From Elephas maximus indicus (taxonomy: Eukaryota > Chordata > Mammalia > Proboscidea > Elephantidae): a stretch of DNA of 64,000 nucleotides. The notes under the pieces were generated by a model. That model saw only the letters and a program-made list of their open reading frames with translations. It was not told where the DNA came from and did no database searches. The number at the start of each line of letters is the position of its first letter. The first letter of the stretch is position 1. The position numbers and the translations under genes are program-made. Positions 38,189-63,145 of the stretch are shown piece after piece. The DNA lies in NCBI RefSeq assembly GCF_024166365.1, contig NC_064837.1, positions 78,983,553-79,047,552 on the forward strand, written 5' to 3'.

Positions 38189-40559
38189 TTTTCTCTTTTT
38201 AAGAAGCTGTTGGCTATTGCAAGTTCACACACAAGGGCTCCTGTCTCCTTCCCGACTCTTGTTGGCCCCCTTGCCCACCTTCACTCAGAGAGTTTTCAAC
38301 TCCCACTTCTACCACGATGTTTCTTCCAACTGGACTCACACTGATCCTTCTACTTTCAAATCTTCAATCTCCCAATCCAATCCAATATGTTTGATCTGTT
38401 ATGGAAAGAGCTGAGGAAACACTTCTCAGGGAACCCATGAAACCAAAACACAATTGAATCTCAGCTTGAGGAAGTGGGATGGATTGGACAGAAAGGATGT
38501 TGATCCCATGAGTCAGGCAAGAGAGGAGGCCCCCTGGCAGAGGGCAGTGAAAACAAGGAGTGCCTGGAAGAGATTGTTCACACTTTAAACCAGAGCCAAA
38601 CAGAATGAGTAATGAGATAGTGTTTGATGTACCTCGTTATATATAGCCAAATCTAGAGATTCCCTACCATGGGGATAAACAGTCATCTGCACTTAAACAG
38701 TCTTAAAGCCTATCAGAGGCAAGGACCCAAAGATACATAACACAAGGAGAAGAACTGGGAAAAAACTGAGAACCCAATCTTCAGAGAAGAAGACCTTCCC
38801 CTTTTGGGATTCCCCTGAATGGTGTCAGTGGGAACAGGATGTAGCATCCACTTAGGGAAGAGGAAGGCCTCTCTTCCGTTGCAGACATGGACATCTCAGC
38901 CATTAGTAATAAAGTCCTAAGTGAGACTGGACTCCTGCCTTCAAACAAGCTCCAGGCTCAGAGGGTTCAGGCATTCCCAGGCGTTCTTCTGTCTTTGGAG
39001 GTCTTCTTGTGACTCTGTCTCTTCTGAATAGAGGGTTCTCCTTGCATGATCTCTAAAGCTCTATTTGTGGAGTTAAACTTCCCTGCAGAAGGATTCTGGG
39101 AGGACTCTAACTGACCCTTTTCCATGGTCACGTACAGCTCTCCTCCCCCCATGGGGAATTCTGGGAAAGCCAGCATCTCCTGGAGTTTCAGTTATATCTC
39201 TGGTCAAATAACACCCTTCTTAACACAGGGAGTTGTCCTTCTGCCTGGAGGGGGCGGGTAAAGAACCTGGTCATATTGCTCAGTAATAGGATAAAGAGAG
39301 ATCTCTAGGATATGGGGGAGGGGAGGGAACAGTCAAGTACTGGGAGACAGGTACCGTTCCAAGCTGAGCAGAACCCTAACTAATGCTAAGTAAATGGGGT
39401 TTTGCCTCATGGTGTCAATATTGAGCTAACCCCCACCCCCCCCCAAAAAAACAGCTTTTTCATATAATGATTTTTAATGTTTAGTGATAAAAAGTAATTC
39501 AAATAGGAAGTTCTCTGAAGCAGTGCATTGCTAATAAGGCTTATCTGTGAACCCTACCATGAATTACAAAGTTGATAAGAGGTCCACTCTTGTTTGGCCT
39601 TGAACTGCTAGTCACAGTTCTGCTGTTGCAGCCAGCAACGTTTCTGAACTCTAGATCTTTTAGCCCTAAACTAAAAAAAAAATCCACACCCAGACTTCCA
39701 GATGGATGTGTAAGACTTCCTTTTCCTTCCTTCCTTTTCCTCCTAGGAAGGTCTGCCTCTTCTTCCCCAATATTTCCTAATCTCAGTGGACTTTTGTGTT
39801 TTGCCATTGCTCAACCTGTGTTGCATTTCAGTGGCATGACCCTTGCCTAACCCGCTTCCTTGCTATCCTAAATGGCTTGTTCATGTCCATTCCCACTGAA
39901 CCGTATGTGGGCCCACTGGCAGCATGTCTCATGGAATGTGTACAGAAAGTCTCCCAGGCTTCCACCCTCCCCACCTCTCCTAGTGCCACAGGGCTTCAGT
40001 ATCCATGTGGGAGTCCATCTACCACCTGAACACCTGAGCTCCACATTCCTTCACCTCAGCCCCTTCAGCAGCCCTGCCCTGCCACATCCAGCAGGTTATG
40101 CCACCCACACCCACTTCATCTCTGAAATCCCACTGGTAAATTCCCCTATCTTTCTGGTTTCCTCTGTTACTAAATCCACTCTCCAACTTCCACCAGATCA
40201 CCATTCCCTGCCTTTTCCCAATTCTAACTGCTCTCTGCAGTGGTCATTTATTTCATACCCACACTCTCCCAACACACCTGCTCACAGGCACACCTGTCTG
40301 GCCTTCACCATCGCTCAAGTAAACCCCAGCTCGGCACCAAACTTCTGTTTCTAAGTGGGAGCTTCTGAACATCCAACCCTGCAAACGGAAACCAATCTGT
40401 GAAGTCCAATCTATCTGGGCCTTCACAGTGTGCTGAGGACTCCCTACCTGTTTTCTCAAGTCCCCAGTTTCACCCTGCCTCCCATCCCATCTGACAGCCC
40501 ACTGCCTCCAGGTCATGACTCGCCATGATTTTACAAAGAAAACAGAAGCACGGCTCCCT
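38189..40559. other. Noncoding, no recognised gene
   Basis: Includes C- and A-runs at about 39,430-39,450 and a 160-codon frame at 39,872-40,354 with low-complexity composition and no family features. Confidence 0.4.
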
Positions 40560-40975
40560 CAGTTTCTCATGCTCTCACCCTAAAGTTGACCCAGACATAC
40601 TGTCCCTCACCCTCTTCGCCCCACCCTCTACAGCACTTGGTTCTCTCCTCCTCTTGAAGGCCTCACACAGCATCAGCATTTCTCTGAGGCCTTCTTAATT
40701 CATAGTAAGTGCTCAATAAATGTCAGTTACTATTATTTTTGTTTCCATGCCCATCGTCCAAAATCATTCACTCTGCTTTCTGCCAGAAATAGTACTATTT
40801 ATACTTTATATTACTACACGGAACATTGCAATTATTTATCCGCCTATCTTCCCCTTGTATAAGACAACAAGCTCCTTGAGGTCAAGAAATACGCCTTTTT
40901 TTTTTTTGGAGACAATTCGCAGTGTCTGGCATTTAATAGATGCTCAATAAACCTTTGATGAAATACATAAATAGC
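40560..40975 (+). mobile_element. L2/MIR-type LINE 3' end
   Basis: 'catagtaagtgctcaataaatgtcagttactatt' and 'aagctccttgaggtc..ctggcatttaatagatgctcaataaa' are L2/MIR 3'-end consensus phrases. Confidence 0.6.
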
Positions 40976-41679
40976 TTTGTGACATCGATATCTTCATCTG
41001 TTTAAGGGCTACACATTATAGAGTTTCCTCAGAAGATTTTAAAAACTAAATTGCCCTGACAGCAAGCTAGACCAATTCAGTAAAATCTCAGAGGGGGACC
41101 AGGCCTCCGTCTTTTATAAAGTGGTGCTGATTACCATGGACAGCCTTGTCTGAGACTCATTGACTAATTATAATACTTTGTTTTATAGGAAGCACCTAAC
41201 TCCAACCTAGTATAAGAGACAAGAGTTTCAGGAAAAGTGAACCATGAAGAAGTTGGTGTTAAGGTCAAGTAAAGGCCCCACATACAAACACTGCTCACTG
41301 GGTAACGAATGACAATATGAACATTTTGACTCGAACCAGAGGTTCAGATGCATAGTGTTCACCCCCCTACTTCCTCCTCTCAGGGCATTATAGTTTCCTG
41401 TGCCCTAACTCCTGTAGTTCTAACGTGAGTTTATAGGATGTTAGGGAAAGGAAAGGTGTTATAGGAGGGAATTGTGAAGGCAGGTTTTGGGGAAGAGGTG
41501 GCACAGCAGGAAAGAGATGGTAGGAAGGCAAGAAATGACCAAAAACTGTAGTCTCGTAGGTTTTCCTAAAAACCTTTGGTGTCTCTTGCTGAATTTGGTA
41601 TGTATTAGGTCAAGCATGTCCCTAAGAAGTCAGTGCAGATAAGGGCTCTAGGACCTTGTACTCAGAGTTTGGCTGTGGG

Positions 41680-41815
41680 CCAGTCAGAGCGTCAGAATCA
41701 CCTGGGAACTTGTTAGAAACAGAATCTTAGCTCTGCTCTATCCGAAACTGCATTTTAGCAAGATCCCCTGATGAAGTGTGTGCATATTAAAGTTTGAGAA
41801 GCACTGTTCGAGACC
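41680..41815. mobile_element. MER5-like hAT-Charlie DNA transposon
   Basis: 'CAGAATCACCTGGGAACTTG' with 'TTAGAAAC' and 'TATTAAAGTTTGAGAAGCACTG' match MER5A/B termini and core. Confidence 0.75.
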
Positions 41816-42824
41816 AGAATCTAATGTGGAAGGTGGCCTAGAGATTCTATATTTCAGTCACTCTCAGGCAATTCAAATACTGGAGATCTGAGGATACCCC
41901 ATATTAGATAGCTTCTTCTGCCAACCAAAGCATTTAGCAATTTCTTCCATGGCCTACGCTGCCCATGAGGCTGGCCATCCATCTCTTATGAATCCCTGTT
42001 GCAAGCAAGGAAACCAGATTCAAAGGGGCTTAAACAGTAAATGAAATGTATTTGCTCACGTAACTGAAGAGCTCAGAGGTAGGGCTCACCTCTGAGAGGC
42101 TTGATTCAGAGGCTCAGGTAATACCACCTGGATCCAGGTACTCTCCTGTCTCTGCCTTCCACCTCAGTGACTTCTGTCCCTGTGCTCCACACTGGCCTCC
42201 AGGCTCCCTTTGTGAGCACAATGGGTGCAGTAGCCAGGGACCACCAGCACACTTTATTTGAGAGCCTCTCCCAGTAACTGTTCTCCCCTCTGCTCTGAAT
42301 GGGATCAAGTGCCTCCGTGAACTGTACATCATTGGGGTAGGGGAATGATGACAGGCTTAAGGCATTCAAAGGAAGACCAGAGTTGTGCTGGGGGAGAAGG
42401 AAGAAAAGGGCCTGGGAGGAGAGGCAACAAGTGCTGTGTCCTATCCTACCTGGGGGACAAGGGCAGGGCTCTGCAGTGCTGCAATAGGATGCTCACCATG
42501 TGGTTGGTCTAGTATTTTATACCTGAGATTTATTTAACTAGCATCGAGCTATCTGAGCCTTTGACTGCAGAAATAATTTTTAGGATCCTCTACAATAATC
42601 ATTCATCCAGCCTCCATACCACTGATTCAAACAGGAAGCACACAAATGTTGCAAGGCTCTTGAGAAAAATCACTGCTTTCTTGTCTGGAAATAGCCAAAC
42701 CCATTCAAAATCTTAAGTAGCATCATGATAAACTGCAAGATTTGAACTCTACATTTCCTAGGGAGAATGGCATTTGTGAGACAATTGTATCTGAATGTGG
42801 GCATCAAGTACTAATCTACCCCAT

Positions 42825-42909
42825 AAGCTTAGGAATTAGAAACATTGGTTTTCTTTGGAAATAAATAATTGGTTTTCTTTGGAAACCAATGTTTCTAATT
42901 CCTAAACTT
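42825..42909. repeat. Near-perfect inverted repeat (hairpin)
   Basis: A 27-nt arm at 42,825-42,851 is repeated in reverse complement at 42,883-42,909 with one mismatch. The loop includes a direct repeat of TTGGTTTTCTTTGGAAA (also overlapping the arms). Confidence 0.93.
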
Positions 42910-43989
42910 GTAAGGGATGAAAGGCAAGCAGCTGGTAGGACCTCAACCTGAGCTTTCTAGGAAGCCATCAGCCAGAGACGTGGGGGAGGAGGCTTCGGCC
43001 TGGCAGTGCTGTGTCGTCACTCGTTTCTTCCAGGTCCCCACGGGGACTGTAACCTTCCCGAGGAGCAGGGACTCCAACTCCCCCCTACCATGATGGTCCT
43101 TCAGCGCAGAAGTCAAGTTTACTCAGCCTGACTTGCTGTGCTAAACTCCCTCCCGCGGAAGTGTTCTGTAGGAAAGCCTGGCCTTTTCCGACCTCGGTGC
43201 TCCCCCGCCCATACACACTTCATCCTCTCCGCCCTCTATGCGGGGCTTAGGTTTGGCCAGTGAGAGGCACTGTCAGGAAATCAGCAGGGCAACAGTATTC
43301 TTCGTCCTGGGCCCTGAGGAGGCTTCATTCCTCTTCCTGCAGGACCCCATAAAGCCACATCTCCCTAGGTTCCTTGCCCTTCCCATTCAGGGCGGATGGG
43401 TGGTGCTTTGGGGGGCTATTTTTTGCCTTAAGGTGCTTCCAGACCCCTGTCGGATTCCCTTTATAGTCTGCTCATTGGTCTTTCTTCAATCACCCATTTT
43501 AGGTAGTTTCCTGCATGATCCTGCCTGACACAGGCACATCTCATTTAATTTTGCAGAAGAATATAAAATCCACAAATGCCCAGAAATTGTGTTACAATCT
43601 TTATTTTCAAGCTCACAAAGATGTCAACATCCAAGAACTACAGAAAGCGTGACCTGAAATGTAGACTATGATGAATAAATGTTAGCTAATTTTTTTGTTT
43701 TTAATAGTTAGAATGAGATAACTTTTGCAGAAAAAAAAGGCCCTTTCTACCAAGGTCCATTAGTTTTCCACGTTATAAAAACAATCTATTTTAATGCAAA
43801 AATAACTTGCATAAGTAGAAAAATGAAATAGATTTGCCTTGTATACGCTTAAGCAGGGCACATTTTGCATTGCCTCGTTTGAGATGTTAACGTTAAACCT
43901 TGATCTTACTGGGATGTTCGTTCTGAGAAAGATAGGAACATTTCCCGTCCTGGGATTTGTAAACGGTCTCAACTCTGCGAACTGGCAAT

Positions 43990-44660
43990 GGAACTTACAG
44001 GGGACAGACGGAGAGGTGAAATCCAGCGCCAGCACCTGAGTCCGCAGTTTCTCTTTTTGGAGCTGTCCCCTTCCTAGGAGAAGGCTGTATCTGGAAGCCG
44101 CGCGCGCAGCCCGCTGCCGGAGAGCCCAGGGCGCCCTCGTACGTGTGCAGGGCGCTGCAAGGCGCCAAGAGGCTCGGCAGAGCGGGGCCTGCGGACTCCC
44201 GGCGGAGCTGGGCGTGCAGGGGTCCGGCAGGCTGTTCCGGGAGCCCTGCGTCGTCTGAGGCCTGCGGGTAGTTACAGGCGCCGCGAGGCAGTCCGCAGAC
44301 AGCCAGGCGGCGAAGAAGGCCGGATCCGGCTCCACGCGGTCCAGCGGGGTCGTCGTGAGGGGGCGCGCCCAAGCCCTGGCAGTTGCACAAGTGGCCGCTG
44401 CAGTGCCGGGGCAGCTGCATCGGATCCGGAGGGAGGCGGGACGGAAAACCTGCTTGGTAAAGGCCGCTGGCCCTGCAGGGCCGGCCGCAGCGCCGCGGTC
44501 TCCATAAGGCCGCTCCTCCGCGGGCCCTCCACGCCAGGCAACGCGTTGCTTTCCCTCTCGCTCGCGCAGCACATGCACCCCACAGGCTGGCTTGAAGCCC
44601 GCAAAACGGTGCCCGTCGAGGGGCGCATACATGGGTGGCCCCACACTAAACGAAGACGTT
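43990..44660. other. CpG-rich patch over pseudogene exon 2
   Basis: The block is visibly rich in CpG (CGCGCGCGC runs near 44,100) and abuts AT-rich DNA on both sides. It coincides with the SOX17 exon-2 homology. CpGs in an old pseudogene are normally lost by methylation-driven decay, so their persistence is notable. Confidence 0.7.
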
Positions 44661-45600
44661 TAGTATTAATAGTATTAACCAATAACCAAGAACAGGGACC
44701 TCATAGCGTGTAATACTGGGGAACTTCTCACCACCTCACGACCAAGCCCGCCCCTTGGGAGGCCCTCTCAGCCTTGTGGTATTAGGGTCCTAAGAGTGCA
44801 AAGGGGTCATCCTGCCAGGCCAATACCTGCTCATAGGAAAGAAGGCGACTTCCTGGCAGTTCCAGGGGACCGCATACAGCCAACGGAGTTTTCTAGCTCT
44901 GCAGCCAGCGCTCATGAGATAAACTACAGGAAGAACTGGTCTTGTACGAAGATTGCACTTGGCGGTGCACAGTTTCTACCCCTTTGTTTCTCGAGTGAAA
45001 TGCGCTCCCCAACATAGAAATGCTGAAATGCAGGCACTGAGTGTGTGCGCATGAGTGTGAGGGAGTCTGACTGAAGGCTTTAACTGCACAGAAAGGATTA
45101 AATTACAGATACAAACGCACACCGGAGGGGAGATGGGACAAGAAATCGAGGTCCATCCTCTCGGGATAGAAAACGCCAAACATACTGTTAATTGAAAAAG
45201 CAAGTTGCAGAAAAATAGGAACACCTTGATCCCACTGGTGAAAAAAAAAGAAAAAAGAAAAAGCAAGTTCTATATGCTTGTATGACTGCAGACGCAGAGA
45301 AAATGTGTGCCAAGGAGCCCAGGAGGATGTAAGCATCATTAGCTTAGAAGCTTGAATTCTGTAGGGTTGTGCTGCTTAAATTTTTATGAAAAAAAATATA
45401 TAAAATTTTTTTAAATAAGGCTATTCACGCCGAAGACATGATTTTACATTGGTGTGACAGAAATCAAGTCTGGTGATTTTATTCCTTCTTCGAGAAAAAC
45501 AACTGTCCCCTCAGAACGCTCCGGAAGTTCAATGGGCACTAAATATCCACAATTACGTAGAGGCCTCTAGGTCCGGCTTTCCTAACACAAACTTTAACCA

Positions 45601-45619
45601 AAAAAAAAAAAAAAAAAAG
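45601..45619. repeat. A-run
   Basis: About 18 consecutive A inside the pseudogene intron region. No flanking SINE was recognised. Confidence 0.9.
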
Positions 45620-46039
45620 GGAACGGTAGACTGCCACTCCGGTGTGTGCAGGCAGCAGCCAGGCTAACTTGAAATCCCGACGCTTTAAGCGTTTCTCTTA
45701 AAGGTGCTGATGACAGCATTTCCAGCTCCACAGACGATGAGCAGCCTTACAGAGTAGGTCCCTACCCTCCGTCTCTTGGTTTCTAACCTCGAGAACCGAA
45801 AAAGAAATTTGGTTTTTCTTTTTACTTGAAATTAGAGCATTCGAGATTTCTTTTATAAAGAGCCTTGCTTGATCACACGACACCTTAAAACCTGTTCCCA
45901 AACCGCAATATTTCGTGGATCATTTATACCAGAAAACGGTTAACAATCTGGTTTAGAACCTTCAACTGAATTTCATCTCCCGCCCCATTGGCCCGTCAAT
46001 TGTTCCTCCAGAGGAAAAACTGGGGACGGAGAAAGCTGC

Positions 46040-47260
46040 CTGGAAGTAGAGACGCTGCCCCACCACAGCGGATTTCCCGAGCCCGGCGACTGGGCGCCGG
46101 CGCCCGGCCGAAGCCCCGCGCCCCACGGAAGCCCATCCTTCGCTGTCCTGGCTCTCTCGCCCGGACCCGGCGCCCCGCCTCCCTGGCCTCGGGCTCAGTG
46201 CAATGCCCTGCAGTCCGGGGTCTCTGCTCCAGCCGCTGGTACCCGGTCTCAGCCACACCTAAAGACATGAGATGCGAGGCTCGCCCGAGGCCAGGTCGGA
46301 GGTCCAGGCCGGCACGCTACCTTGACCTTCGCCTTCACCTCCCGAAAGGGCCTCAGCAGCTGGGTCCAGGGGCAAGGCTCTAGCCTGGCCATCACCGCGG
46401 GCAGCACGCCCCGGGCCTGGCTCTGGTGGTGGCTGGCGTATCCCGCATCCGGCCTGCTCATGGCGCTCCAGGTTAATCCCGCACCCAGCAGCCCTCGGCC
46501 GGACACGCCAGCTCCTCCGACACAGAGATGCCAGCGCTTGGTAGTGGGGAGAGGAAACGCTGGCTGCGACGGTCACCCTGGGCTCGACCCCGCCCCCTGC
46601 GTTCGGGTCTAGTCCTGACCGCAGCGCAGCCTTGCGTTCTGGCCGGCCCAGTGACACAATGGCGCCCCCGAACCACGGGGTTTTCTGCCCAGGTCCAGTG
46701 CAGAAAACTGCAGCCTGCTGCCCAGCTCCACCGCGAGGTCGAGAACTCAGGTGCCGAGGATCCACCCATCCAAAGGACTCGGTGGCTTTTGGGTTTGTGT
46801 CCGCTCAGAGAAAATACCCGGCTAATCCCTCCACCCATGCACACCTAGGATGAAAGAGCTTTCCGGATCCCGCGTGTGCACCGGCTGGAGCGTCGGTGCA
46901 GCTACCGGTCGGATCCTGGAGCGCACCGCCTCACAGCAGGAGGCGAGCCTTCAGACCGCTCCGGCTGAGCTTGTGCGCCGGCTTGGGCTCCAGCGCCGGA
47001 CCTGGCGGGCCTGGCTCATGCCAGGCAGGAGGTGCAGCTCCGGGAGCTGCGCTTCCTGCGCTGGGCGGCCTCGAAACGCCAGGAGGCAAGCGCTGTGCTT
47101 CACGGTCACTCCGTCCTCTTTACCGGGCGCTGGCCTAGCGGGTCGGGGCGACCTGCGCACGACGCCGCCGTCCCGGAGTGGGGCTTTGGGGCGGCCCCTA
47201 TTGCCCGGCGAGGTCCGGGGTTAGGTGCTGGCCGCGCTATCCTGGACTCTGGCTGTGCCT
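46040..47260. other. CpG-rich block over and upstream of pseudogene exon 1
   Basis: GC- and CpG-rich sequence begins near 46,040 inside the decayed exon-1/intron region and continues past the pseudogene start to about 47,260, where AT-rich sequence begins abruptly. The part from 46,690 to 47,260 has no visible SOX17 homology. It holds overlapping open frames on both strands (for example 46,850-47,224 and 47,032-47,385), none of which I recognise. Confidence 0.65.
46470..46690 (-). promoter_or_regulatory. Duplicated SOX17 5' UTR/promoter segment of the pseudogene
   Basis: Upstream of the pseudogene ATG the sequence still follows the SOX17 5' flank. GGCGCTCCAGG next to the ATG, the GACCGCAGCGCAG block and the GGCCGGCCCAGTGACAC block all recur at 55,680-55,890. 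Homology fades near TTTTCTGCCC (46,680 against 55,915). The CCAAT at 55,935 in SOX17 appears to correspond to CCAGT here, but that alignment is weak. Whether the segment has any residual promoter activity cannot be told from sequence. Confidence 0.7.
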
Positions 47261-50200
47261 TGTCCCAACACACTACCCGACTTTTATTTTTTCTTTTTAA
47301 ACACCAAACCCACGATCTTTTACTTTCTAAGTTAAAGTCTATCCAGAGTCTTGTTAAAATGCTCCCCTGCTTTACTAACAGCTGAGGCCGTGTCTGGGCG
47401 AGGAAAGCATTGCGCGCGCCCAGCGTGGGTGGGGACCGTCGCAGTTTACCCCGAACTCAGAAGGGTGCTGGAGTGTGGTGGGAGTACTGAGCTTGGAGTC
47501 TGCCCCTTTTAAATGATTCGTGTGCCTGAGTGTAAAGATTTAGGGCGACTACTTACCTTGCCTACTGGATGTACCAAGTGAGTGAATTAAAAATCACCGT
47601 GGGACACTGCGGTTAACAGTCCGGACTGCCTGGGATTGATTAAGATGCTGTGAAAATGGGCTCCTTTCGCAGGATGCAGGCATCAGTGTTCAGTCTGCTC
47701 CACCCCTCTTCCACCAAACATGGGCACGAAATCAGTCAAAAAAAAAAAAAAAAAAAAAAAAGCCCAACTTCGCAGCAAGGGGGAGGAGCGACGCGGGGAA
47801 GGGTGGGGCCCGAATGGTCTCACCTTACGCAGTGAGGAGTCAAGACATTGCGCCATTGTGAGGGAACAAGTAAAAGGTGTGAAATCCTAACACTTTAAAT
47901 GACAGTGGTTATCAATAGGATTGCCCAAATGGAAATAAGGATAGCATTACATTCGGAAAATAGAGGCGGGCAGAAAATTCTTAGCTACCAGAGCGGGAAG
48001 TCAATGTCTAAAGATGATAAATCTAGAATTAGTTGCGCGAGCATATTTATTAGCCACCGGACGAACAGAATTTCTACTGATATTAATGCAGGTGATGCCC
48101 AGAAGAACAAAAATGGCCCGTGGAGCTGGTGCTGGGGAGGGATGGGACCTTCTCCGACTTTTCGTTTAAATTATACACCTACTGTAATGTATGAATCTTG
48201 TAAGCTTGCGCATCCCTTAAAATTCGGATTATTTGAACAGTGAATAAATAAAAAGTATACAATTTCCGTATTGAATCCACACTCCTTTTTACTCAAACTA
48301 CAAACCTGAGTACTTTTTTATTTCTCCCCCTGTACTCTCACTAAGCCTTCTGTAGTTTAATGTTCTGGGCACGTGTGGGTGTGCACATGCAATTCCCACT
48401 AGCTTTTTAAACAGCCAAATAGATTTGTGAAAACGAGCAGAAGCATTTGCCATATAGGGAACAACTATCAAAGTGTCCCTTCGTTTTGCCAGTGTCTCAG
48501 AATTTTCTTCTCTTCACCAGTCCACTAGCTGCCCTGGTGAAAGAAATCACTTCTGAGGACTGAGTGAACCTCGAACCGCTGGAAGCCAGAATTTATTTCC
48601 TCATGTGCTGGCCTCTCGCATTCCACTCTGCCTATTCATCTTCAGGAATTCAGGCTCTGTTCAGATTCAGGATCTGAGAAGCTGACTGACTGGTGGGGGA
48701 AAGGGCTGAACTGAAAAGTGTTAGCAGAGCTGACATTATCTTCAGTGTGTCCCAATTGATGGACTTTTTATAAGCCCTTGGAGCCTTCATTCTAAATGAG
48801 AGTTCATATGAACTGAGGCGTTCTATATATAAAGTCCTTCTGCCAAACAGGGAAGAAGGTAGTCTGATTCCTTCAAGTGACAATTATTTCTATTCTCATT
48901 TTATAATCAAAGAGGCCGAGGTGTCCAAAGCTCAGACTAAAACGCAGATGATCCCTAGCTCCAGCAAATATGGACAACCTTTACCAGGCTGTAAACTTCT
49001 CAACCCACTATGCAAAGAACCCAGGGAAGGCAAGTTATTCCTGTCTTCTCTTTCCCAACGGGAGAGTGAAATTAAATCCCTGAGGATTTAATTAGATAAA
49101 AAGATTAAAAAGATGAGTTAGATAAAAAGAGACATAAAATCAAGACAGAGATGGGGAGAGAATTCCCTTTCTGTGGCACTGAAGCCCATCCTCATTTGAT
49201 CCCTACAACAATTCAGTGAGGCAGGCAGGGCTTTTTTTACTATCCCTGCTTTCTACAGATGAGCAGGCTGGAGTTCAGAAAAGGCTAGTGATGTGTCCAA
49301 AATCACAAAGCTAAGTGACTGAGCAAGATGAACTTCATAACTCCAAGTGCAGAGGGTCTCTTCTTCTGGGACACTGCCACTTGTGGTATTATTCAGCCAT
49401 TTTCTACTCCCTGCTCCCACAGCTCAGTCTCTGGCATTAACTTCCAGTGTTCTGACACACATTATTCAGGGGAAAGGAATTCAGCCACTGGATCATCATC
49501 TCAAAATAGAAAAAAGGCAAAGCAAGAACTCTTAAGTTCTCACTGGAACCCCCCAGTGAAAACTGAGATAACAAGTGAGTTATTCAGTAAAGGTTTGCTG
49601 AGCACTTGTAGGGTGCCAGGTCAAGCGATTTAGAAGGAAAAGTCAGACCATCCATGTCCAGGTAGCTCTCCATCTAGCCAGAAAAGACTGACCAGAACCT
49701 GCTGAGCTCTCACTGTGTGCTGGCCACTTACCTTTTCATCTAACCAAGGACAGCAGAGACGAATGGGTCTAAGCCACAGGCGGGTCCAGGCTTGTGTATT
49801 AACCCGCACCAGAATCTCAACTCAGAGAGCAAGACTTCAAAAAAATCATATATTCGAGCCAAATCAGTTTTAGGAATACTTGTTAGGAAGTCAGTTTGGC
49901 AAAATATTTAAGGCTTGGGTTAAAGTGACAACAAGATCCTCAAAGCTAGAATTCTTCAGTGAGCTGTCATATGTAGATGTTTTTTTTTTAATTCAAACTG
50001 TTGTGTGGACCTGCGTTGTAGAGGAATTTTACATCAAAAACACCATTGTATCATAACAATTTATTCGGCATTGGCCGTATACTTGGCACTGCATTAAGAA
50101 AAATGAATGAATTTTTTTTTCCACTTTCTAGAACAAAGCTGGGAGAATCCCTTGCGGTGAGGGTTCAGGGTTTATATAGGAGAAATGGGTGCAAACTGAA

Positions 50201-50626
50201 TTGCTGATTCACGTAAAGCTGTCTGAAAGCGCAAAAGAAAGTACAAGGAAAACTTTCCACTAGAGGGAGGACGGGGAAGGATGTGGATCGGGTCCCAGAG
50301 CCAGGGGACTTGAAATGCCGAACTGACCACAGGCTCAGTATGTTGAGAAACTTGAGCTGAAACTTGGTTCCTCATCCTACACCAGAAGAGGACTTGGTAG
50401 GGACATCATTGCCCCCCCGCCTCCCCCGGGCCGCTCCCGGCCAAATATTCCGGACTCAGAAGGAAGCATCTTTTAAGCAGAAAGAATAAATTTCTGCTGA
50501 AATAATGGACATGAAATAACTGATATTGTCAAAATCAATCAAAGGGCATGGGGGAGGAAGGGAGTGTTGAACATTACGTGACGGGCATGGTTCTGAGTAT
50601 TAAAACTGAATGAAAGGGGCATTTAA
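47261..50626. other. Noncoding DNA between pseudogene and SOX17
   Basis: No gene. Contains an A-run at about 47,739-47,761 and a MIR at 49,190. The 114-codon frame at 47,899-48,243 has no recognised features. Confidence 0.4.
49190..49325 (-). mobile_element. MIR SINE
   Basis: 'CTACAGATGAGCAGGCTGGA' and 'TCCAAAATCACAAAGCTAAG' match the reverse MIR core. Confidence 0.7.
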
Positions 50627-50694
50627 AAATGCTAGACTGAAGAAATAAATAAATAAAGCACAATAAAAAAAATAAAACACAAATGCTAGACTGA
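50627..50694 (+). mobile_element. Minute L1 insertion with target-site duplication
   Basis: AAATGCTAGACTGA occurs at 50,627-50,640 and 50,681-50,694. Between them lie 40 nt including AAAGCACAATAAAAAAAATA, the terminal sequence of the L1 3' UTR seen at 2,325 and (reversed) at 30,350. Confidence 0.75.
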
Positions 50695-53474
50695 GGTGAT
50701 GTGTTTTGGTCTATAGCCTCCCATCCCATTTTCTCTGAGTAGCTTTGGCTTGAATGTGCTTTTCCTGACGCCAACACTGATTTAAAGAGCAGCCTGATAC
50801 TTTTTTTCAAACTGAAAGAACAGTAATCTCCAGAGATAAGAATAAAAAGTAAAAGCAATTGTGGCACTGCGAAGTCACTTCTTAGCTGCTTGTCTGAGTA
50901 ACGACGTAAAAGCTTAGATAACTTATTAGACCCACTCTGGCCCCTTCAATAGAGATCTAGTCAGGGTCCTAGTGGGGAAGAAAATGCCCTCTGTCTCTCT
51001 GGGTCTCTCAAAGTTGTATAGACCCTATGCTGGCCTCCAGTCAGGAAATCTCACCCCAGGAAAGGGGAGACTGGTATCCTTTAGATGATGTCATGCATCG
51101 TTCATCCTGGTCCATGCTTTACACTCCATCACCTTAAAACTAAAACCTCTGACCCCAAAGTTCTTTCCCTGATTTTTGCCACCAGTGCCCAAGTTCTTGC
51201 GCTTCAAAATAAATGATTTAAGGATAACAGCTGTTTCAGTAATTTGTTGCTGCATAACAAACCACCCCAAAACTTAGTGGCTTATAAACAACCCCTTGAT
51301 TTTTTCTCATTCCTGTCAGTGGATGGCCTGGGCTCATCTGGGCTGTTTACTCTGCTGGCCTCCCTTGAGTTACAATCAGATAGTAGCTGGGACTAGGTCA
51401 TCCTGGGGGAAAGGCTGAGCTCCTCCCCCTTTCAGGGAGTCTCAGGGCCACTTCTCTCCACATGGTCTCTCCACCAAGGTAACTGGTAACTGGACTTTTC
51501 ACAGCATCCAGGGACTTTGAGAGCAATAAACACAATCTGCCAAGCCTCCTTAAGGTTCAGTATTTGGACTGGCTCAGGATCCCTTCTACTGCATTTTGTT
51601 GGGTTAAAGCAGTAAGTCAAATATGCATTAAATGTGGGAGGGGATGATAAAAGGATATAAATATCAAAGGCATGGATTCACCACGCCATCCTTGGAAACT
51701 AGCTACGAGCATTACAACAGCTGCAGAAAGGAAAAGATCCTGTATTCGCCTTCGCAGGGCATCACAGGTTTCCTTTATATTTTGAGTGAGGGACAGACTA
51801 CTATTCCCCATAGTCCTTGATTCAAATCCCACGAGAAGTGAGACCCAACAATAGGGAGGGCTCCTGAGATGCTGCAGGGTGTTTTCAGCTAGAGAAACTG
51901 CCTTTTGGTGGGGTGCAATCCTTCCCACAAACCTTTCTCTCTATCGGGGCTTCCTGGGAACTCTTGCCCTGGGGAAGGACTTAGGCTGGGCAGAACCACC
52001 TATCTGGGACAAAGGAAGAGCATGGGGAAGGTAGAGCTCTAGAGGCAAACAACCTGGATTAAGTGGTAGAAATCAGCCTAGTGTGAATTTTGTAATTTCA
52101 AATTTTAAGGTAGCCTCCATAGTGTCTTACAAAATGAACTTCCCTTTCCTTGCTGAAACCCTCTTTCCCTTATATTCCTAGCATTCAGGAAGCCCGTCTT
52201 AAAAAACAAACAAACAAAAAAAACCCCTACTGTTTCTCCAGAGAATCCAGCCAAATATTTCAGCTCCAATAGCCCTCCCACACCCATCTTCAGGACAAAT
52301 GCTTGACCCTATCTTCCTACCCTTTCCTTTTCCTTATGGCACTTAACATTAGGGAGCAATTCGTATGTCCACCACAATGCAAGTTCTCCAGGTGCCCACA
52401 GATACAAATGTGTTGGAAGAACTCACAATATCAAGCCTTCCCCATCCACTGGTCAGGCTGAGAGTTTGTGCCTTCTTTTCTCACTTGCAGAATGGGAGAA
52501 TAGCTTCTGTGCTCACTGGCTGGTTCAGGCTCAAGCTCTACGGATAGAATGGGATGAAGAAACACTGGGCACTGGGAATGCCCAACTGCATCAGGATTTG
52601 TGTCTCCATCTGAAACATTCATGAAAACACCACAGCAATTCAGAGCACTGCAGCAGACTGCAAGGCCCAACACCCTACTCACAATTCTGGGACCATTTCT
52701 TCCCCATAAAGGCATGAATGACAGTGATGCTTTCTGGCTGCAGAGTAAGTATTTGTAAAGCACACTACACACCAACCGCAGACTCTTCCCAAAGATCAAG
52801 AACTTCAGGTGTCAGAAAATGTCACATATGCAGTTAACATACAAGATCAAAACACTATTGAAATGAGCTGCTCAGGTTCATTTAAAGTCACAATACAAGT
52901 TTTATTTTGATTAGTTCCTGTAACTCCTTCAAATTATTTTTAACCCAGCAATTGTACTTCCCCCAAGGTTTAGAAATGCGAGAATTAAAGGCAAGTTCAG
53001 TGTTGAGGAGGTGGGTGTTGGGGTAAAGACTCCTGGTGGAATACAAACAACCAAAAATTTCCAAAAAGCCCCTGTAAGCAAGTCTCAACATTACTATCCA
53101 ACAACCAAAAAACCAGAAACACTCGGGTACTCTCCTTCGATTAAAGCAATAGGCCAGAATTGAAAATACTTACATAAGATTAACCATTACTTCACAGAGA
53201 ATAAGATCACTTGGAATGGATGACGTGGTGCCTTCCACAAGGTTTCTTTTTTCTAGCAAAATCAATTAGGGACACACGTGGGTATCCTGATATTCACTTT
53301 CGGGGATTCTCTTTGAAGCCATTTAGGTCTACTATTATAAAAGAATGATAAATCTACAGGAACTGTACATTTAAGGTCACCACTGAAGTATTTTATGTCT
53401 TAATATTAACACTGACTTTAAGACTCAGCTCTTAATAAAACACTGACTTAGTGTGACAAGGCACCGGCAGAGTG
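50695..53474. other. Noncoding DNA directly downstream of SOX17
   Basis: 51,230-51,600 ('ttgttgctgcataacaaaccaccccaaaac') is an old interspersed repeat of unresolved family. Nothing else was recognised. Confidence 0.4.
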
Positions 53475-53851
53475 AAAAAGCAGAAATCCAGATTTTATTT
53501 TCAAAAGATTAAAAAACAAAAAACAAACACACCCGCGACAAAATTTCTTTGATCAATAAACTTTCAGGAAACAGAGCCAGTTATTTTGGGGCACATTCAA
53601 ACCTGGCAAACTTGGAAATGCAGTTTTGACCATGCAATCGTGAGGAACAAGTCTCTGAACAAATCTTAAACCCCAACCTCACATTCCTCCCAAAGGTTCA
53701 AGTGGTAGTCAAAATAAATTACCATAAATTATACGCCAAGGCAATTTACAAACAAAAACAGAACATGAGGCTGAGGGTTTTCTTAGCTCCTCCAGGAACT
53801 GTGTAACACTGTTTGTGCCTCTGGCCTGCAGGCTCGCCTCTCGGGCATCGG
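53475..53851 (-). other. SOX17: SOX17 3' UTR with polyadenylation signal
   Basis: Directly after the SOX17 stop, the minus strand runs through an AT-rich 3' UTR of about 375 nt. A canonical AATAAA lies at 53,499-53,494 on the minus strand (TTTATT on plus), followed by a T-rich stretch and TGCCGGTGCC, so cleavage near 53,475 is likely. A similar GAAAATAAA motif near 43,600 may mark the equivalent end of the downstream pseudogene copy. Confidence 0.75.
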
Positions 53852-56110
<2,259 letters not shown>

Positions 56111-56900
56111 TGCCCTCTACCCGGGAAGGGGGACTCTAGAAAACTTTGCTGAGGTGCTTGCCGCACGGCAGTTCTCATTAACATACTAAGTACCCACTTA
56201 CTCTCTTTTAAATCAAATCTTTATTACAGGAGCAAAGTGTTTCAGAGTTGGGTGATCTGCCTTTCTTCTAAGGAACCACATGAGTGTCTTCTTCAAATGA
56301 GTTCTTAAAGAATGCAAAAGGCACTTGATAAAAAATAGAAAATAAATCTCTCTCCACGGACTCAAATTACTTTTTGTATTATATTCGAAATGCTCTGTCC
56401 AGGGCGAATTCGACTTTTTGTACCAAAAAGATTGAATATGGAATGATGCCTTGTAGGCAATATCCAGTCACCCACCTGAAGAACTTAAAGGCTTTACTCA
56501 TATTGATAAACCAATCCTTGAACGTCTGTACAAGAAATGTATAATAGACACAGCAAAACTGTTTTCCATATGTCTTTAATAAGAGGCGATTTATTTTTTA
56601 TTTCTAAAATGTGGTTTAAAAAGAGCCAAAAAACAAAAACTGCAGCAATATTTATCTAAATGCCAATAGTATTTAGAGCTGAAAAACCTTCTCAGTGGGA
56701 TTTTTAAACAAGCCGTTATATAGCACGTACAGCATGCCCTTCCTTCCAAACATTAGCAAACTAGTTTTGGGGCATAACAAGTGATGCAGACACTGTTGTA
56801 TCTTACAGGAGGGGAAACTGAGGCACAAAGGTTAAGAAACTCCACGGAGACCACAAGATGGGGCAGGGTTCAGGTGGAATTCACACCTCCTAGTCTGCCT

Positions 56901-57095
56901 CCAGGAGCTCTGGTGGTGCAACGGTTAAAGCGCTCAGCTGCGGCCGTTGGGAACCCACCAGCGCTCACTGCTGACAGGGAGAAAGATGTGGCCGTCTGCT
57001 TCCGCAAAGATTACAGCCTACGAAACCCTATGGGGCAGTTCTCCTCTGCTACAGGGTCACTGTGAGTGGTAATCCACTCCACCGCACACGATTAC
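56901..57095 (+). mobile_element. AfroSINE, extended variant
   Basis: 'GGAGCTCTGGTGGTGCAACG' head, an internal 'gacagggagaaagatgtggccgtctgcttcc' segment and 'GGGGCAGTTCTCCTCTGCTA' body. The tail is diverged. Confidence 0.88.
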
Positions 57096-57591
57096 AGTCA
57101 GCCTTAATCACTGGGACAGGCGAATCGTGTTCTGTGCGTTTGTGTTGTTTTCTAAGGCAACTAACAGTCATTCCTGCATAATTAGAGACAACTTTGCAGA
57201 AGAAATCAATACACCAATCTCCAGATCTTTGTTTACTATGAAGGGGTGATGAAAAAGTGGTGCTTACATCCAAGATGTGAGAGGCCAACCGGACAGCTTT
57301 TGGTGTGATGTTACAGTGACAGTCATCTGTCAAGTCCGATTAGTGCCATCCATAAAAACAAAGAAACACTGGAGCCTTGCAAATCAGTTTCTTGGTCATA
57401 GCTTTTTCTCCAGAAAACACCTACACACTTGTTTTAAACCAACTTTTCTTCAACTCTTGCAGTAACTGTGAAGCATTGGCCCTCCCTTACCCTCACCAGC
57501 CACCTAAGAAAATAGTTGTAGTTCCCCGGCATCTCAGGTTCAGACAAAAAAAGATTTAAAATCTGTTTAAGGGAATTATCCTCCCCCCCCC

Positions 57592-57732
57592 CAAAAAAAC
57601 ACCATTCGCTGTGGAGTCAATTCCAGCTCATGGCGACCCCTTGTGTGCCAGAGTACAACGGAGTTCCACAGGATTTTCAATGGCTTTTGAGAAGTAGTTG
57701 GGCAGGACTTTCTTTCCAGGGCCTCTGGAAAT
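57592..57732 (-). mobile_element. Old AfroSINE-type SINE
   Basis: 'GGAGTCAATTCCAGCTCATG' and 'ACAGGATTTTCAATGGCTTT' match the variant at 17,428; the tRNA-like head is lost. Confidence 0.8.
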
Positions 57733-58559
57733 TATAGACGGGTATTATTCTTAATCAATCGTTTTAAATAAAAAAAAGTTGCTCTTAAATTGAATTATGT
57801 ACTTTTCTTTTAAAGCTTCATTTTCTGGGGAAAAAAGGGGGGCTTTAAAATAAAGCACAAATGTAATGCAAGTGGTATAAAAGTAAGAAAACTTCTAATA
57901 GTATTTCAAATTAATCCCATAGCTCCTTTTTCCGTGCCGTTTCTTAGAGATCTTTTCTAATTTTCCGGGATAGTAATAAATATCTTTACAAAAGTCTCAG
58001 AGCAGAATTTCTATTAGCACAAAAGCATCTTACGAACTAACAGTTTTCTTAGGAATGGAATTGAAAATTAAACAAAACCAATGCCCATTCCAGAATCCAG
58101 TTTATCTGTCTAAATTAATCCACTTGACTAATTCCTTAAAAATAAAAATAGTACAATAAATAAAATCCACATGTGAATAAAAAATGTATACCCACGGATT
58201 TATCCTTGGACACGTTCTCCATCCTTATTCTTCCTCATCCACCCCATTACAGGCACAGATGTGTTGGGGAGCCAAAGAGGGAGAAGGAATATTGAGAAGA
58301 AAGCCCGAGGGTGCCCCCTTATTACTCCCATTGTTCCTGGAGCCTAGCTACCGATCTTTGTCCGGTGAGGTTATTGAGAGCGGAGGAAGCCTAGGATGCA
58401 GTTCGGAGTCAGAGCTTGGCGCCCTTCCCCCCACTTCTTATAACACCCTCCCCGGGAGACGTAAGGCAGTAGTTTATTTTATCATAATTCCAGGAAGGAA
58501 TTATGGTGCCTTCCCAAGACTAGTCCCTTTTACATACGGTTATCTTGATCTATTTTTTT

Positions 58560-60200
58560 CTCTTATTTCTCTTGTCATGTATTTGGGGCGCGACGGCCAA
58601 GCAGACCCTGCCGCACTGTGCCGGACTCTCCTATTTCAGTCTCTCCACCAAGCGCGGCGCTGAAGCCGAGCTCCCGGCGTTATCAGACTCGGCCACAAAC
58701 GCCACATGAAAAGCAGCAAACATCCGGAACGGCTTCCTGCAAGCCTTGCTTTTCTCAACAGGAGAGACTGACGCGCGGGGGGAGGGGGGAACTTCCCCGA
58801 ATAAGAGCCTTGTACACCGCCCGGGTCGCGGGGACCTCTGGGCTCCCGGCTCCTAAGGGCGCTAACGTCCCGGTCCCAGGTCGCCCTCGGGGCTCCAGGG
58901 GCTGGCCGAGTTGGTGACTACACTTCGGAGCCTTTTAACCCGGGTAGTGACGAACTGTGGCTCAGGCCCCAGGAGTCAGATACACGCTTTCCCTTGGCCT
59001 CTGAGTGACCAGCCAGGGCTGAGGGATTTCCTGCAGGCTTTTGTGCTTTTGATGCTCGGAAAACCGGGCCGCACGAAAGACACTCTAGGCGATCGGGAAG
59101 GACCTCTGGGCCCCCAGACAGACCCGGGTTGGCTCCGGAGAGCAAGTCCGTGGGGGCGGGGAGGAGAAAAATGCGTCGCAAAGCCCGCGAAAACTCCCGG
59201 GAGGCCCGCCGAGTGGACAATAGTGTTCCAGGAACAATGAACAACAATAATAATAATAATAATAAAAGGCCTTTGCATTTGTAAATCGGGCTCCAAAGCT
59301 GACCTCGGGGAGCCGAGAGGGAGGGAACCGGTGCGGCAGCCGCGAGCGCGTCCGAAGGCTTCACACCTCCCAGGTAGGGCCCCGCACTCGCAGGTGGGGC
59401 GTCTGCACTTCCCAGGCTGGGTCCTCGCACCTCCCAGGCGGCTCCCCTCACCTCCCGGGGAGGGGGGCCCTCGCATCATCTCCCAGGTGGGACCCACTAG
59501 CCTTGGCGTCGAATGGGTGGCGGCGCCGCGCCTTTCGCTACCTTTCGCGTCTCCTCCCGTGGGTCCAGAATGAGAGGTCGAAGGTCGCGGGCGGGTGGGG
59601 AGGAAGGAGTGGCTCGGAAGATAGCGGCTGCCCCGTCCTGCCCACGCGCGGCGCCGCACAGACCCCAGGCAGGGGAGGCATCTACCCCCCAGACCCTGCC
59701 CTGGCCCTGCCCTCACTGGCAGCCGCCTCTCGGCAGTGGCGGCGGGAAACCGTGACCGAGAGAGCGACTTTGGGGATGCCCGTTACGCACGAAGATACTA
59801 GAAGTGCAGTCGGTTTTCACTCCCCCTCCCGCTCTCTCGCCCGCGTCCCTCCCCGGGCCAGGGGTTTGCACGGCGAATCAGAAAATGTGTGGTTCCGGGT
59901 TCACGTTTCTGCTCTGAAGCTCGCGCGCCGAGATGTTTCTTATTCCCCTCCCAGCCAGTGGCCCCGGGGTTGAGGTGTGGGCGCCGCGCCTTTCTTGCCT
60001 GGCTTTATAGAACCTTAGAGTCGGGAAGAGAGGGTGTTGTCGGGGATGAGGGAGTCACAGCCCAGCCCCGTCCACCAGGGCAAGTTACGTGCACGTACTG
60101 TTTTGCAGTCCCCCTTAGCTCGGCCTCGCACCTTTAAGTGGCATTTCAGTAGTGGCGGGGCTTCTCCGCACTCAGCGCCACTGACCTCCAGCTCCTGCCT
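58560..60200. other. Second CpG island upstream of SOX17
   Basis: A GC- and CpG-rich block lies about 2.9-4.5 kb upstream of the SOX17 ATG, separated from the SOX17 island by AT-rich DNA with two SINEs. It contains GGGCGG/CCGCCC-type boxes and a short (AAT)n tract at 59,245-59,264. The long open frames (for example minus 58,976-59,716, 246 codons) show no family features. It could be an alternative SOX17 promoter or first exon, a divergent noncoding-RNA promoter, or an enhancer. Confidence 0.65.
59240..59266. repeat. (AAT)n microsatellite
   Basis: About eight consecutive ATA/AAT trinucleotides sit inside otherwise GC-rich island sequence. Confidence 0.9.
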
Positions 60201-61548
60201 ACCCACGCCCTGGGAGAGGCCAGAGCTTTCCCTGCAGAGTTGTATCCTCCGCTGACAGCCTTATCGTCAGCGCGTTCTCTGGGAGCAGAAGGATTGCACT
60301 CTCCACCAGAGAGCAGACACGGTCTCCGCCCCGCAGGAATGTACAGTGCGGTATCATTCGTCCTCCTCCCTGATTTATTAACCTCCAGCTGGGGGGTTCT
60401 AGGCCTGTTCTCCTGTAATCATTTGTCCCTGGCATGTGGAGGGGGTGCTGACGTCAGTAGACCATTCGCTTTCAGATATTTGTTCTAGTCGCGGTAATAG
60501 GTTGCCGTTCCTCCCCCAAAACTCTGTATTGCCAAGTTTCCCTGGTAAACAGGGCTGGATTTCGCCAGGTGGTTGCTTAGGGCAAGGTGTTCATTCTGTG
60601 ATCAGGGACTCAGGTCAACAGGACTCATTACCAGCACTTCCATGTCACTTTAGCGACAAGCATATCAGATTTTGAACTGTACCTGAGTTGGTGTCTAAAG
60701 TTCCCAAACAGGAGAGAAAACATTAAGTGTCCTGGCTGGATTCCTCAGAGCCCTACCTTTGGGGTCAGTCTTCCGTTGAGTCATGTTACCTAAATTTTCT
60801 TTTCTGTCCATTTCTTCAGTCTTACCAGCAATTTTGTCAGTACTCTTTAACAGAATGTAGGGTATTTGTTCATTTTTGTCTTTATATTCCTGGAGCACAC
60901 ATAATTCACTGGTATTTAATAAATACTTATTGATACTATAAATAACTATCCTTCTTATTCAAGTCATTTCAAGGTGAGACACTGAGGATTATCCCCATAA
61001 AGCTCAGCAAGGACCCTGTTCTTACATCAGACACATCTGTATAAACCATGTGGTCACCTGATTCGCCCCCTCATTCACCAGGAGTTCAGTCTCCAGTCAT
61101 TAAGCACCTGAAACCACCACCTCTTCTGAGGATTAACTCAAGCCCCATTGCTTTCTGACCCCATTCAACCTGGATTTCTTCTACCAGCTCCAGGCCAAAA
61201 ATGTGTACGGATAATTTTGCAGGTAGATACAATGCAAAAGCAAATATCTCTTTATGTGGGATTTTTCAAAATCAAAATCTTCAGTTACTTTCTTAATATT
61301 CCTGGAGTACACTTTTACAAAGCAGTTTCAGTAGACTAACTCACCAGACCCTACAGAGAGCCTGGAGTAGGCAGAGCAGCCTTTGAGATTATCGCCATTT
61401 TTCAGAAGAGGAGGCAGACACTGAGGGGGATCCTTGAGTTACTCAGGGTCACATGACAAGGGTGCTTGGACCATCTATTTGCCCTAACAGTCTATTGTTT
61501 TGAATTTCTTTTCATCCCAAGTCTACGGACAGGCCCAGTGGGTTAAAA
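60201..61548. other. Noncoding DNA, MIR fragment at its end
   Basis: 61,385-61,470 looks like a reversed MIR ('tcgccatttttcagaagagg'). No gene recognised. Confidence 0.4.
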
Positions 61549-61718
61549 AAAACAAAAACAAAAACCCATTGCAGTTGAGTGGATTCTGACTCAGAGCGAC
61601 CCTATAGCACAGATTAGAACTGCCGCATAGGGTTTCCAGGGAGGGCCTAGTGGATTCAAACTGTCCACCTTTTGGTTAACAGCTGTAGCACTTAACCACT
61701 ATGCCACCGAGTCTTCCA
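61549..61718 (-). mobile_element. AfroSINE
   Basis: Reversed SINE, 'AAAACCCATTGCAGTTGAGT' to 'TATGCCACCGAGTCTTCC'. Confidence 0.92.
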
Positions 61719-61820
61719 AAAAATATGGAAGGCATCACGAAGGGATATAAATAAAGAGAGTGGATAGAGACGGAGTAAAGCACAGAAACTTCCAGTGTGG
61801 TCCCTAAGCAGATCATGAGG

Positions 61821-62332
61821 TTTTTTTGTTTTGTTTTGTTTTTTAATTAGTTTTTATTGTGCTTTAAGTGCAAGTTTACAAATCAGGTCAGTCTCTCATA
61901 CAAAAATTTATATACACCTTGCCATACACTCCTAATTGCTCTCCCTGCAATGAGACAGCACAGTTCTTCCCTCTACTCTCTCTCCTCTGTGTCTATTCTG
62001 CCAGCTTCTGGCCCCCTCTGGCCTCTCATCCCACCTCCAGACGGGAGATGACAACATAGTCTCATGTGTCCACTTGATCCAAGAGGCTCACTCTTCACCA
62101 GTATCATTTTCCGTCTCCTTCTTTTTTTTATTCCAGTCCAATCTCTGTCTGAAGCGTTAGCTTTGGGAATGGTTCCTGTCTTGGGCTAGCAGAGGGTCTG
62201 GGGACCATGGCCTCCAGGGTCCCTCCAGTACCAGTCTGACCATTAAGTCTGGTCTTTTTACAAGAATTTGGGGTTTGCATCCCACATCTCTCCTGCTCCC
62301 TCAGGGGGTCTCTGTTGAGTTCCCTGTCAGAC
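61821..62332 (-). mobile_element. 5'-truncated L1 (3' UTR)
   Basis: T-rich start then 'TTATTGTGCTTTAAGTGCAA', collinear with 30,340-30,810; ends near 'GTTGAGTTCCCTGTCAGAC'. Confidence 0.9.
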
Positions 62333-62889: not shown

Positions 62890-63145
62890 GCACTCAGGAG
62901 TCTGAGGGTCACTGCAGCACAGACCGGGAGTTGAACTGCCGGGGGAGGAATCCCAGTTCTGCTCTGTGTCCTTGCAGATCTTACCTCGCCTCTCTGGACC
63001 TCGGTTTCCTCATAGATAAAGTGAAGGATAATAATGATACCGACCTCAGGGGGGTTTATGAGGATGAAGTGAGTTAATTGTCCATAAACTGTTTAGAGCA
63101 GACATACTAAGTGCTACACAGGCATTTAATAAATAGAATAAAATG
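62890..63145 (+). mobile_element. MIR SINE
   Basis: 'CTCTCTGGACCTCGGTTTCC', 'ggataataatgataccgacctca' and 'aagtgctacacaggcatttaataaat' span most of a forward MIR. Confidence 0.85.

What the first reader, a model, noticed from the sequence alone, without database searches (positions are those of the whole stretch)
43590..46690. A broken second copy of SOX17 lies 9-10 kb downstream in tandem
Seen: the 5' UTR, start codon, first 49 codons (30/49 identical), an HMG-box scrap and exon-2 blocks occur in order on the same strand as SOX17, with noncoding DNA between the exons. SOX17 is, as far as I know, single-copy in placentals. Inference: a local genomic duplication once produced two SoxF genes side by side, and the downstream copy then lost its splice donor, HMG-box frame and C-terminus. 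This is a lineage-level gene gain and loss at a dosage-sensitive developmental regulator.
Basis: partly seen in the sequence, partly recalled or inferred. Interest (0 to 1): 0.85.

Follow-up and report, generated by a model that had tools for sequence, protein, structure and literature searches.

The report
Decayed second SOX17 beside elephant SOX17
Next to the working SOX17 developmental gene in what looks like an elephant genome lies an old, broken second copy of it, a dead tandem duplicate whose well-kept CpG-rich DNA and possible counterpart in another mammal make its age worth checking.

Summary
Intact SOX17 (minus strand, 53,852-55,679) has a degraded copy 9.2 kb away on the same strand. 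Two blocks are secure: upstream DNA, start codon and exon 1 (46,148-46,703) and mid exon 2 (44,083-44,523), 69% identity, E 1e-74 and 9e-65. They match SOX17, not the other SOX loci fetched. Frame-breaking indels, a mostly missing HMG box, no splice donor, no recognisable C-terminus and equal divergence at the codon positions (p 0.64) make it a dead, unprocessed tandem duplicate. It keeps two codons that elephant SOX17 lacks and falls among afrotherian/xenarthran SOX17, so it predates elephant-specific changes; the exact branch is unresolved. Placement with marsupial SOX17 is rejected, gene conversion aside. And an unnamed boreoeutherian-looking protein, P0137, is a SOX17 exon 2 whose C-terminus is replaced by a tail resembling the relic's own 3' flank (p 7e-5 to 4e-4; plain tblastn only E 0.21), a hint of an older, shared copy.

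The parts
55373..55679 (-). Intact SOX17 exon 1, coding part (ATG to the donor G|GTGAGT)
   Evidence: translation; donor located; exon hits of 100% and 99% identity
53852..54765 (-). Intact SOX17 exon 2 to the stop codon; with exon 1 it encodes 406 aa
   Evidence: 95% identical to manatee SOX17, 92% to the Loxodonta model
46462..46703 (-). Relic copy: DNA upstream of the start codon (5' UTR/proximal upstream region)
   Evidence: 241 aligned bases, 24% different from SOX17; alignment
46148..46461 (-). Relic copy of exon 1, ATG at 46,461-46,459, broken first HMG-box half, and the start of the intron without a GT donor
   Evidence: blastn E 1.2e-74 together with the upstream part; in the coding part deletions of 13, 12, 1, 1, 1, 1 and 3 bases and insertions of 1 and 3
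44083..44523 (-). Relic copy of the middle of exon 2; includes six bases (two codons, A-S) that elephant SOX17 lacks; ends before the C-terminus
   Evidence: blastn E 9.2e-65; alignment; deletions of 20, 6, 7, 3 and insertions of 4, 2, 11, 6 bases
44468..44533 (-). Possible scrap of the second HMG-box half (weak; overlaps the exon-2 block, so the two alignments compete)
   Evidence: score 20; 2 of 500 shuffles as high
43763..43884 (-). 3' flank of the relic that resembles the tail of protein P0137
   Evidence: frameshift-tolerant score 64; 0 of 1500 shuffles, 0 of 520 window tiles, 0 of 700 shuffled tails and 0 of 1714 pieces of 136 other proteins as high; plain tblastn E 0.21
43600..43697 (-). 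Possible remnant of the SOX17 3' UTR end (suggestive only)
   Evidence: 3 of 500 shuffles but 15 of 610 real tiles reach the local score

Best explanation
It is an unprocessed pseudogene. A segment that held SOX17 with its upstream region was duplicated in tandem, and the downstream copy decayed. Shown: common origin with SOX17, same strand, upstream and intron-start DNA included, disabling indels, a mostly missing HMG box and C-terminus, no measurable difference in divergence between codon positions, and presence of two codons that SOX17 of this genome and of the Loxodonta model lacks. Inferred: the event came before the elephant-specific changes, on the afrotherian stem or near it, possibly earlier; the copy did not serve for long as a second SOX17, so dosage returned to one; its CpG-rich DNA stayed largely unmethylated in the germline because it lies in the open chromatin domain of SOX17, where it may act as a CpG-island element but not as a protein gene.
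For: Two collinear matches at E 1.2e-74 and 9.2e-65; eight other SOX loci of this genome (seven distinct places, two of them overlapping fetches) reach E 0.017 at best. The whole-genome search with SOX17 protein lists both relic pieces (E 1.8e-17 and 3.1e-10). Divergence at codon positions 1, 2, 3 is 52/232, 46/231, 54/230 (chi-square p 0.64). Of 7 elephant-only changes the relic has the state of other placentals at 5, shares 1 (T33) and has a third state at 1 (positions 54 and 175 lie outside the well-aligned blocks). Afrotheria-only residues shared 4 of 5, Afrotheria+Tamandua residues 3 of 3, two of these also found in marsupials and so perhaps ancestral. Tree: relic with Afrotheria 88/71, with Afrotheria+Tamandua 95/95. 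CpG observed/expected 0.69 and 0.89 in the two blocks against a window median of 0.24 and 90th percentile of 0.70; CpG transitions 18 of 108 against 17 of 142 for GpC.
Against: The relic row is very long (0.9 changes per column). Placements from the elephant tip to stem Atlantogenata are not separated; stem Placentalia is 5 to 8 log units worse with AU p 0.03-0.11 on a fixed tree and p 0.34 in the free-tree test. T33 is shared with elephant alone, and C310, found in all 6 afrotherians, is absent. Of 3 paenungulate-type residues 1 is shared. P0137 may mean that the copy is older than Afrotheria. The flanks beyond the gene and most of the intron show no homology, so the extent of the duplicated block is unknown. 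Total change at CpG is higher than at GpC (54 of 108 against 39 of 142), and methylation was not measured.
Confidence: 0.85

Rival explanations
1. The downstream copy is older than Afrotheria: the placental ancestor already had two SOX17 genes in tandem, gene conversion kept the copies alike within each lineage, and the elephant relic and P0137 are leftovers of the same second copy.
For: P0137 was picked by a query that did not contain the relic's 3' flank, yet its tail resembles that flank: 41 residues, one frameshift, score 64, Gumbel p 7e-5 to 4e-4 against three backgrounds, and 0 of 1714 pieces of 136 other SOX17-family proteins come near (max 47). P0137 carries N253 (0 of 29 boreoeutherian rows) and L299 (1 of 29) like the relic. 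Opossum and the frog Ascaphus have pairs of SOX17 proteins on one contig, alike except for the C-terminus.
Against: By plain tblastn the flank match has E 0.21 and three other places of the window score better with other parts of the tail (E 0.024, 0.084, 0.12). P0137 comes from a 1,108-base contig of an unnamed sample with 2 members; its SOX17 part is 93% identical to hippopotamus SOX17, too fresh for an old dead copy unless it was converted or is young. The substitution data prefer Atlantogenata. No DNA of P0137 could be read.
Confidence: 0.2
2. It is the elephant remnant of the second SOX17 that marsupials still have (an old therian pair).
For: Opossum has SOX17 and SOX17-like on contigs of one and the same length, hence probably one chromosome, and a fused gene model (P0024) suggests that the -like gene lies downstream on the same strand, the layout seen here.
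Against: Holding the relic with marsupials costs 30.5 log units (AU p 0.016) and 35-42 in fixed-tree placement (AU p < 0.001). At 38 placental-versus-marsupial sites the relic has the placental residue at 24, the marsupial one at 1, another at 13. The divergent marsupial C-terminus does not match the relic's 3' flank (130 of 200 shuffles as high). Conversion could mask a common origin, and the C-terminus that would tell is missing.
Confidence: 0.05
3. A retrocopied (processed) SOX17 that landed near its parent.
For: No intron homology beyond the first aligned bases past the donor.
Against: Exon blocks are 1.6 kb apart instead of joined, about 34 bases past the donor align, 241 bases before the ATG align, and it lies 9.2 kb away on the same strand.
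Confidence: 0.04
4. Assembly artefact or recent allelic duplication.
For: None found.
Against: The copies differ at 129 of 550 and 89 of 418 aligned bases and the relic keeps codons that SOX17 lacks.
Confidence: 0.01

Closest known systems
Unprocessed (duplicated) pseudogenes
   Same: Tandem copy beside the parent gene, exons apart, upstream DNA copied, disabling indels
   Different: Old, with well preserved CpG content, and of a developmental regulator held to be single-copy in placentals (recalled)
sox32, the tandem sox17 duplicate of ray-finned fishes
   Same: Small tandem duplication of sox17, adjacent (PMC12648240, passages seen)
   Different: sox32 is a living gene with a changed role; this copy is dead and of placental type
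SOX17 / SOX17-like pair of marsupials
   Same: Two SOX17 genes, apparently in tandem on one strand
   Different: Grouping with them is rejected; both opossum proteins are full-length
Afrotherian gene duplications linked to cancer resistance (TP53 retrogenes, LIF6)
   Same: Extra gene copies in elephants
   Different: The main text of the survey PMC7952090 holds no word beginning with 'SOX' (passages seen, supplements not seen); this copy is not a retrogene and cannot encode a SoxF protein

Membership tests
Unprocessed pseudogene of SOX17 | Significant, collinear similarity to the parent over exon and non-exon DNA | tested here: met
Unprocessed pseudogene of SOX17 | Disabling changes in the coding sequence | tested here: met
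   frame-breaking indels in both exons; donor GT absent; most of the HMG box and the C-terminus not found
Unprocessed pseudogene of SOX17 | No coding constraint | tested here: met
   no measurable difference between codon positions (p 0.64)
Unprocessed pseudogene of SOX17 | Copied intron | tested here: inconclusive
   about 34 aligned bases past the donor; no match for the rest
Unprocessed pseudogene of SOX17 | No protein product | not testable with these tools
   no elephant RNA or protein data here
SOX7 or SOX18 remnant | Better match to SOX7/SOX18 than to SOX17 | tested here: not met
   SOX17 E 2.7e-74 and 2.1e-64; eight other SOX loci fetched from this genome E 0.017 at best; which of them are SOX7 and SOX18 is my reading of the exon layout, not a test
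Processed retrocopy | Exons joined, no upstream or intron DNA | tested here: not met
Ortholog of marsupial SOX17-like | Groups with marsupial SOX17-like proteins | tested here: not met
Ortholog of the P0137 copy | Shared truncation and shared 3' flank | tested here: inconclusive
   tail-flank score p 7e-5 to 4e-4, plain tblastn E 0.21; DNA of P0137 not readable

The most novel reading that the evidence does not exclude
Placental mammals began with two SOX17 genes in tandem, as marsupials and some frogs seem to have today. The downstream copy, shortened at its C-terminus and kept similar by gene conversion, was lost line by line; elephant DNA keeps a dead remnant, and at least one unnamed boreoeutherian mammal (P0137) still carries a SOX17 exon 2 with an intact HMG part and without the C-terminal domain. 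Single-copy SOX17 would then be a derived state of placentals.
Probability: 0.17. Interest if true: 0.75.

Novelty: new member of a known kind. Interest (0 to 1): 0.45.

Why it matters
SOX17 sets endoderm, germ-cell and vascular fates and is held to be single-copy in placentals (recalled). A dead tandem copy shows that a second dose once arose and was not kept, and its CpG content asks whether a dead developmental gene can remain a living CpG-island element. If the second copy turns out to be shared across placentals, the single-copy state itself becomes something to explain.

Tried and rejected
Homology beyond the gene (55,927-64,000 against 46,691-53,300; 49,000-53,851 against 39,000-44,082; intron against the gap region): nothing collinear and significant. 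SOX17 C-terminus of manatee in the relic's 3' part: 14 of 200 shuffles as high. Marsupial C-termini there: 130 and 189 of 200. 3' UTR: suggestive only. Clade tests gave no resolution: relic+elephant p 0.39, relic+elephant+manatee 0.43, Atlantogenata without relic 0.41, all placentals without relic 0.34, relic+Boreoeutheria 0.32. A bird SOX17 (P0076) matched the first 60 bases of the relic's 3' flank at E 7e-4, better than P0137's tail (0.005) in that same plain search of 137 proteins, which I read as chance and as a warning about such E-values; in the frameshift-tolerant score it reaches 47 against 64. Papers: six searches for a SOX17 pseudogene or second copy in mammals or elephants (listings seen) showed none in the titles and abstracts listed; only open-licence papers are held. 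Two more searches were on AfroSINE and on methylation valleys (listings). Passages were seen of PMC6523956, PMC12648240, PMC9604385, PMC9223172 and PMC7952090; no paper was read whole. Rows dropped: Xenopus, Sphenodon, Struthio and Carettochelys from the trees (35 of 39 rows kept); 26 of 39 rows.

Full report
What is there. The window lies at G000:C26:78,983,553-79,047,552 of a 3.40-Gb assembly in 64 contigs. Its SOX17 protein is 95% identical to manatee SOX17 and 92% to a Loxodonta model that, by eye, has out-of-frame stretches; with Loxodonta it shares private features such as the missing A-S pair. I take it to be an elephant; the genus was not tested. SOX17 is intact: 406 aa, coding exon 1 55,373-55,679 and exon 2 53,852-54,765, minus strand.

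The observation. BLASTN finds two collinear, same-strand matches downstream of SOX17, E 1.2e-74 and 9.2e-65. They cover about 242 bases before the ATG, exon 1 with about 34 aligned bases of intron, and the middle of exon 2. Aligned bases agree at 421/550 and 329/418. Codon positions 1, 2 and 3 differ at 52/232, 46/231 and 54/230 sites: no sign of coding constraint. Frame-breaking indels, the mostly missing HMG box, the missing donor GT and the missing C-terminus leave no readable SoxF protein.

How old. I projected the relic on SOX17 codons (225 columns) and compared it with 38 SOX17 proteins. Identities: elephant 137/223, manatee and tenrec 137/225 each, marsupials 91-99 of 222-223. The maximum-likelihood tree puts it with Afrotheria (88/71) inside Afrotheria+Tamandua (95/95). 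On a fixed species tree with 26 rows, marsupial and turtle placements are rejected (AU p < 0.001), stem Placentalia and stem Boreoeutheria are 5-8 log units worse (AU p 0.03-0.11), and the Atlantogenata placements, elephant tip included, are not separated. The free-tree tests reject only the marsupial grouping (p 0.016); stem Placentalia has p 0.34. Private states point to an origin before the elephant's own changes: the relic keeps A-S at 256 and A22, P280, F311, but shares T33 with elephant and lacks C310, which all 6 afrotherians have. Nine AfroSINE-like copies in the window (identified from recall; PMC9223172 passages describe AfroSINE and put the divergence of Afrotheria at 80 million years) lie 0.08-0.16 non-CpG substitutions from their consensus, while relic and SOX17 differ by 0.21-0.23. 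Part of that lies on the SOX17 side, so this is a rough yardstick only.

CpG content. Methylated dead DNA should lose CpG fast. The relic blocks keep CpG observed/expected ratios of 0.69 and 0.89; over 440-base tiles the window median is 0.24 and the 90th percentile 0.70. Of 108 aligned SOX17 CpGs, 54 are CpG in the relic, 18 became TpG or CpA, 36 something else; of 142 GpCs the counts are 103, 17 and 22. The transition rate is thus near the control, although total change is higher at CpG. From 43,561 to about 48,400, 10 of 11 tiles are at 0.6 or above, some of them low in GC and so noisy. I infer that the domain was largely spared germline methylation and belongs to the open domain of SOX17; this was not measured.

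A possible counterpart. The search with the relic read-through, which ended at the exon-2 block, returned two proteins at E <= 1e-3 among 870 candidates. The first, P0137 (244 aa, unnamed lgn contig of 1,108 bases), is a SOX17 exon 2 with an intact second HMG half, 93% identical to hippopotamus SOX17 over 181 columns, that loses the SOX17 C-terminus after GALGS. Its new tail resembles the relic's 3' flank at 43,884-43,763 with one frameshift: score 64 against maxima of 60 (1500 shuffles), 51 (520 window tiles) and 54 (700 shuffled tails), Gumbel p 7e-5, 4e-4 and 1e-4; 1714 pieces of 136 other proteins reach 47 at most. I noticed the likeness by eye before testing it. Plain tblastn gives only E 0.21 and 34% identity for the main piece, and three other places of the window score better with other parts of the tail. 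SOX17's own 3' region scores 34 by a single-frame measure in which the relic flank scores 48, other windows up to 46 (820) and shuffles up to 44 (300). P0137 carries boreoeutherian residues but N253 and L299 like the relic. It may be a sister remnant of an old second copy, an independent young duplicate at the same place, or a chimera; its DNA is not in reach.

Known relatives. sox32 of ray-finned fishes is a tandem sox17 duplicate (PMC12648240, passages). Opossum has two SOX17 proteins from one chromosome-sized contig, 308 of the first 320 alignment columns identical and then 29/40 and 22/40; the frog Ascaphus pair has 200 identical residues and then diverges. SOX17 thus seems to duplicate repeatedly in tandem, with conversion keeping copies alike (inference). 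Six paper searches showed no SOX17 pseudogene of mammals (listings).

Verdict. A confirmed, ordinary kind of object (a dead tandem duplicate) at an unusual gene, with an open and testable question about its age.

Noticed in passing
proteins P0035, P0042, P0024: Opossum carries SOX17 and SOX17-like on what is probably one chromosome, near-identical except for the last 90 residues; a fused gene model suggests tandem order on one strand. Six further marsupials' proteins share the divergent C-terminus (by eye).
   Followed up: partly
proteins P0085/P0127, P0057/P0058, P0071/P0073: Pairs of SOX17 proteins on one contig in a frog (200 identical residues, then a diverging C-terminus) and in two birds (nearly identical; could be assembly duplicates).
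   Followed up: partly
proteins P0018 and P0047: The titi monkey Plecturocebus cupreus has a second SOX17-like protein on another contig, with changed HMG residues, perhaps a retrocopy.
   Followed up: no
58,521-60,280: CpG-rich stretch (observed/expected 0.74-0.90) 3-5 kb upstream of SOX17, without homology to the DNA upstream of the relic.
   Followed up: partly
5,990-6,144 and eight other places: Nine AfroSINE-like repeats, 0.08-0.16 non-CpG substitutions from their consensus; the name is recalled.
   Followed up: partly
2,360-3,362 ~ 20,349-21,377 and others: Several longer dispersed repeats (79-82% alike), probably transposon pieces.
   Followed up: no
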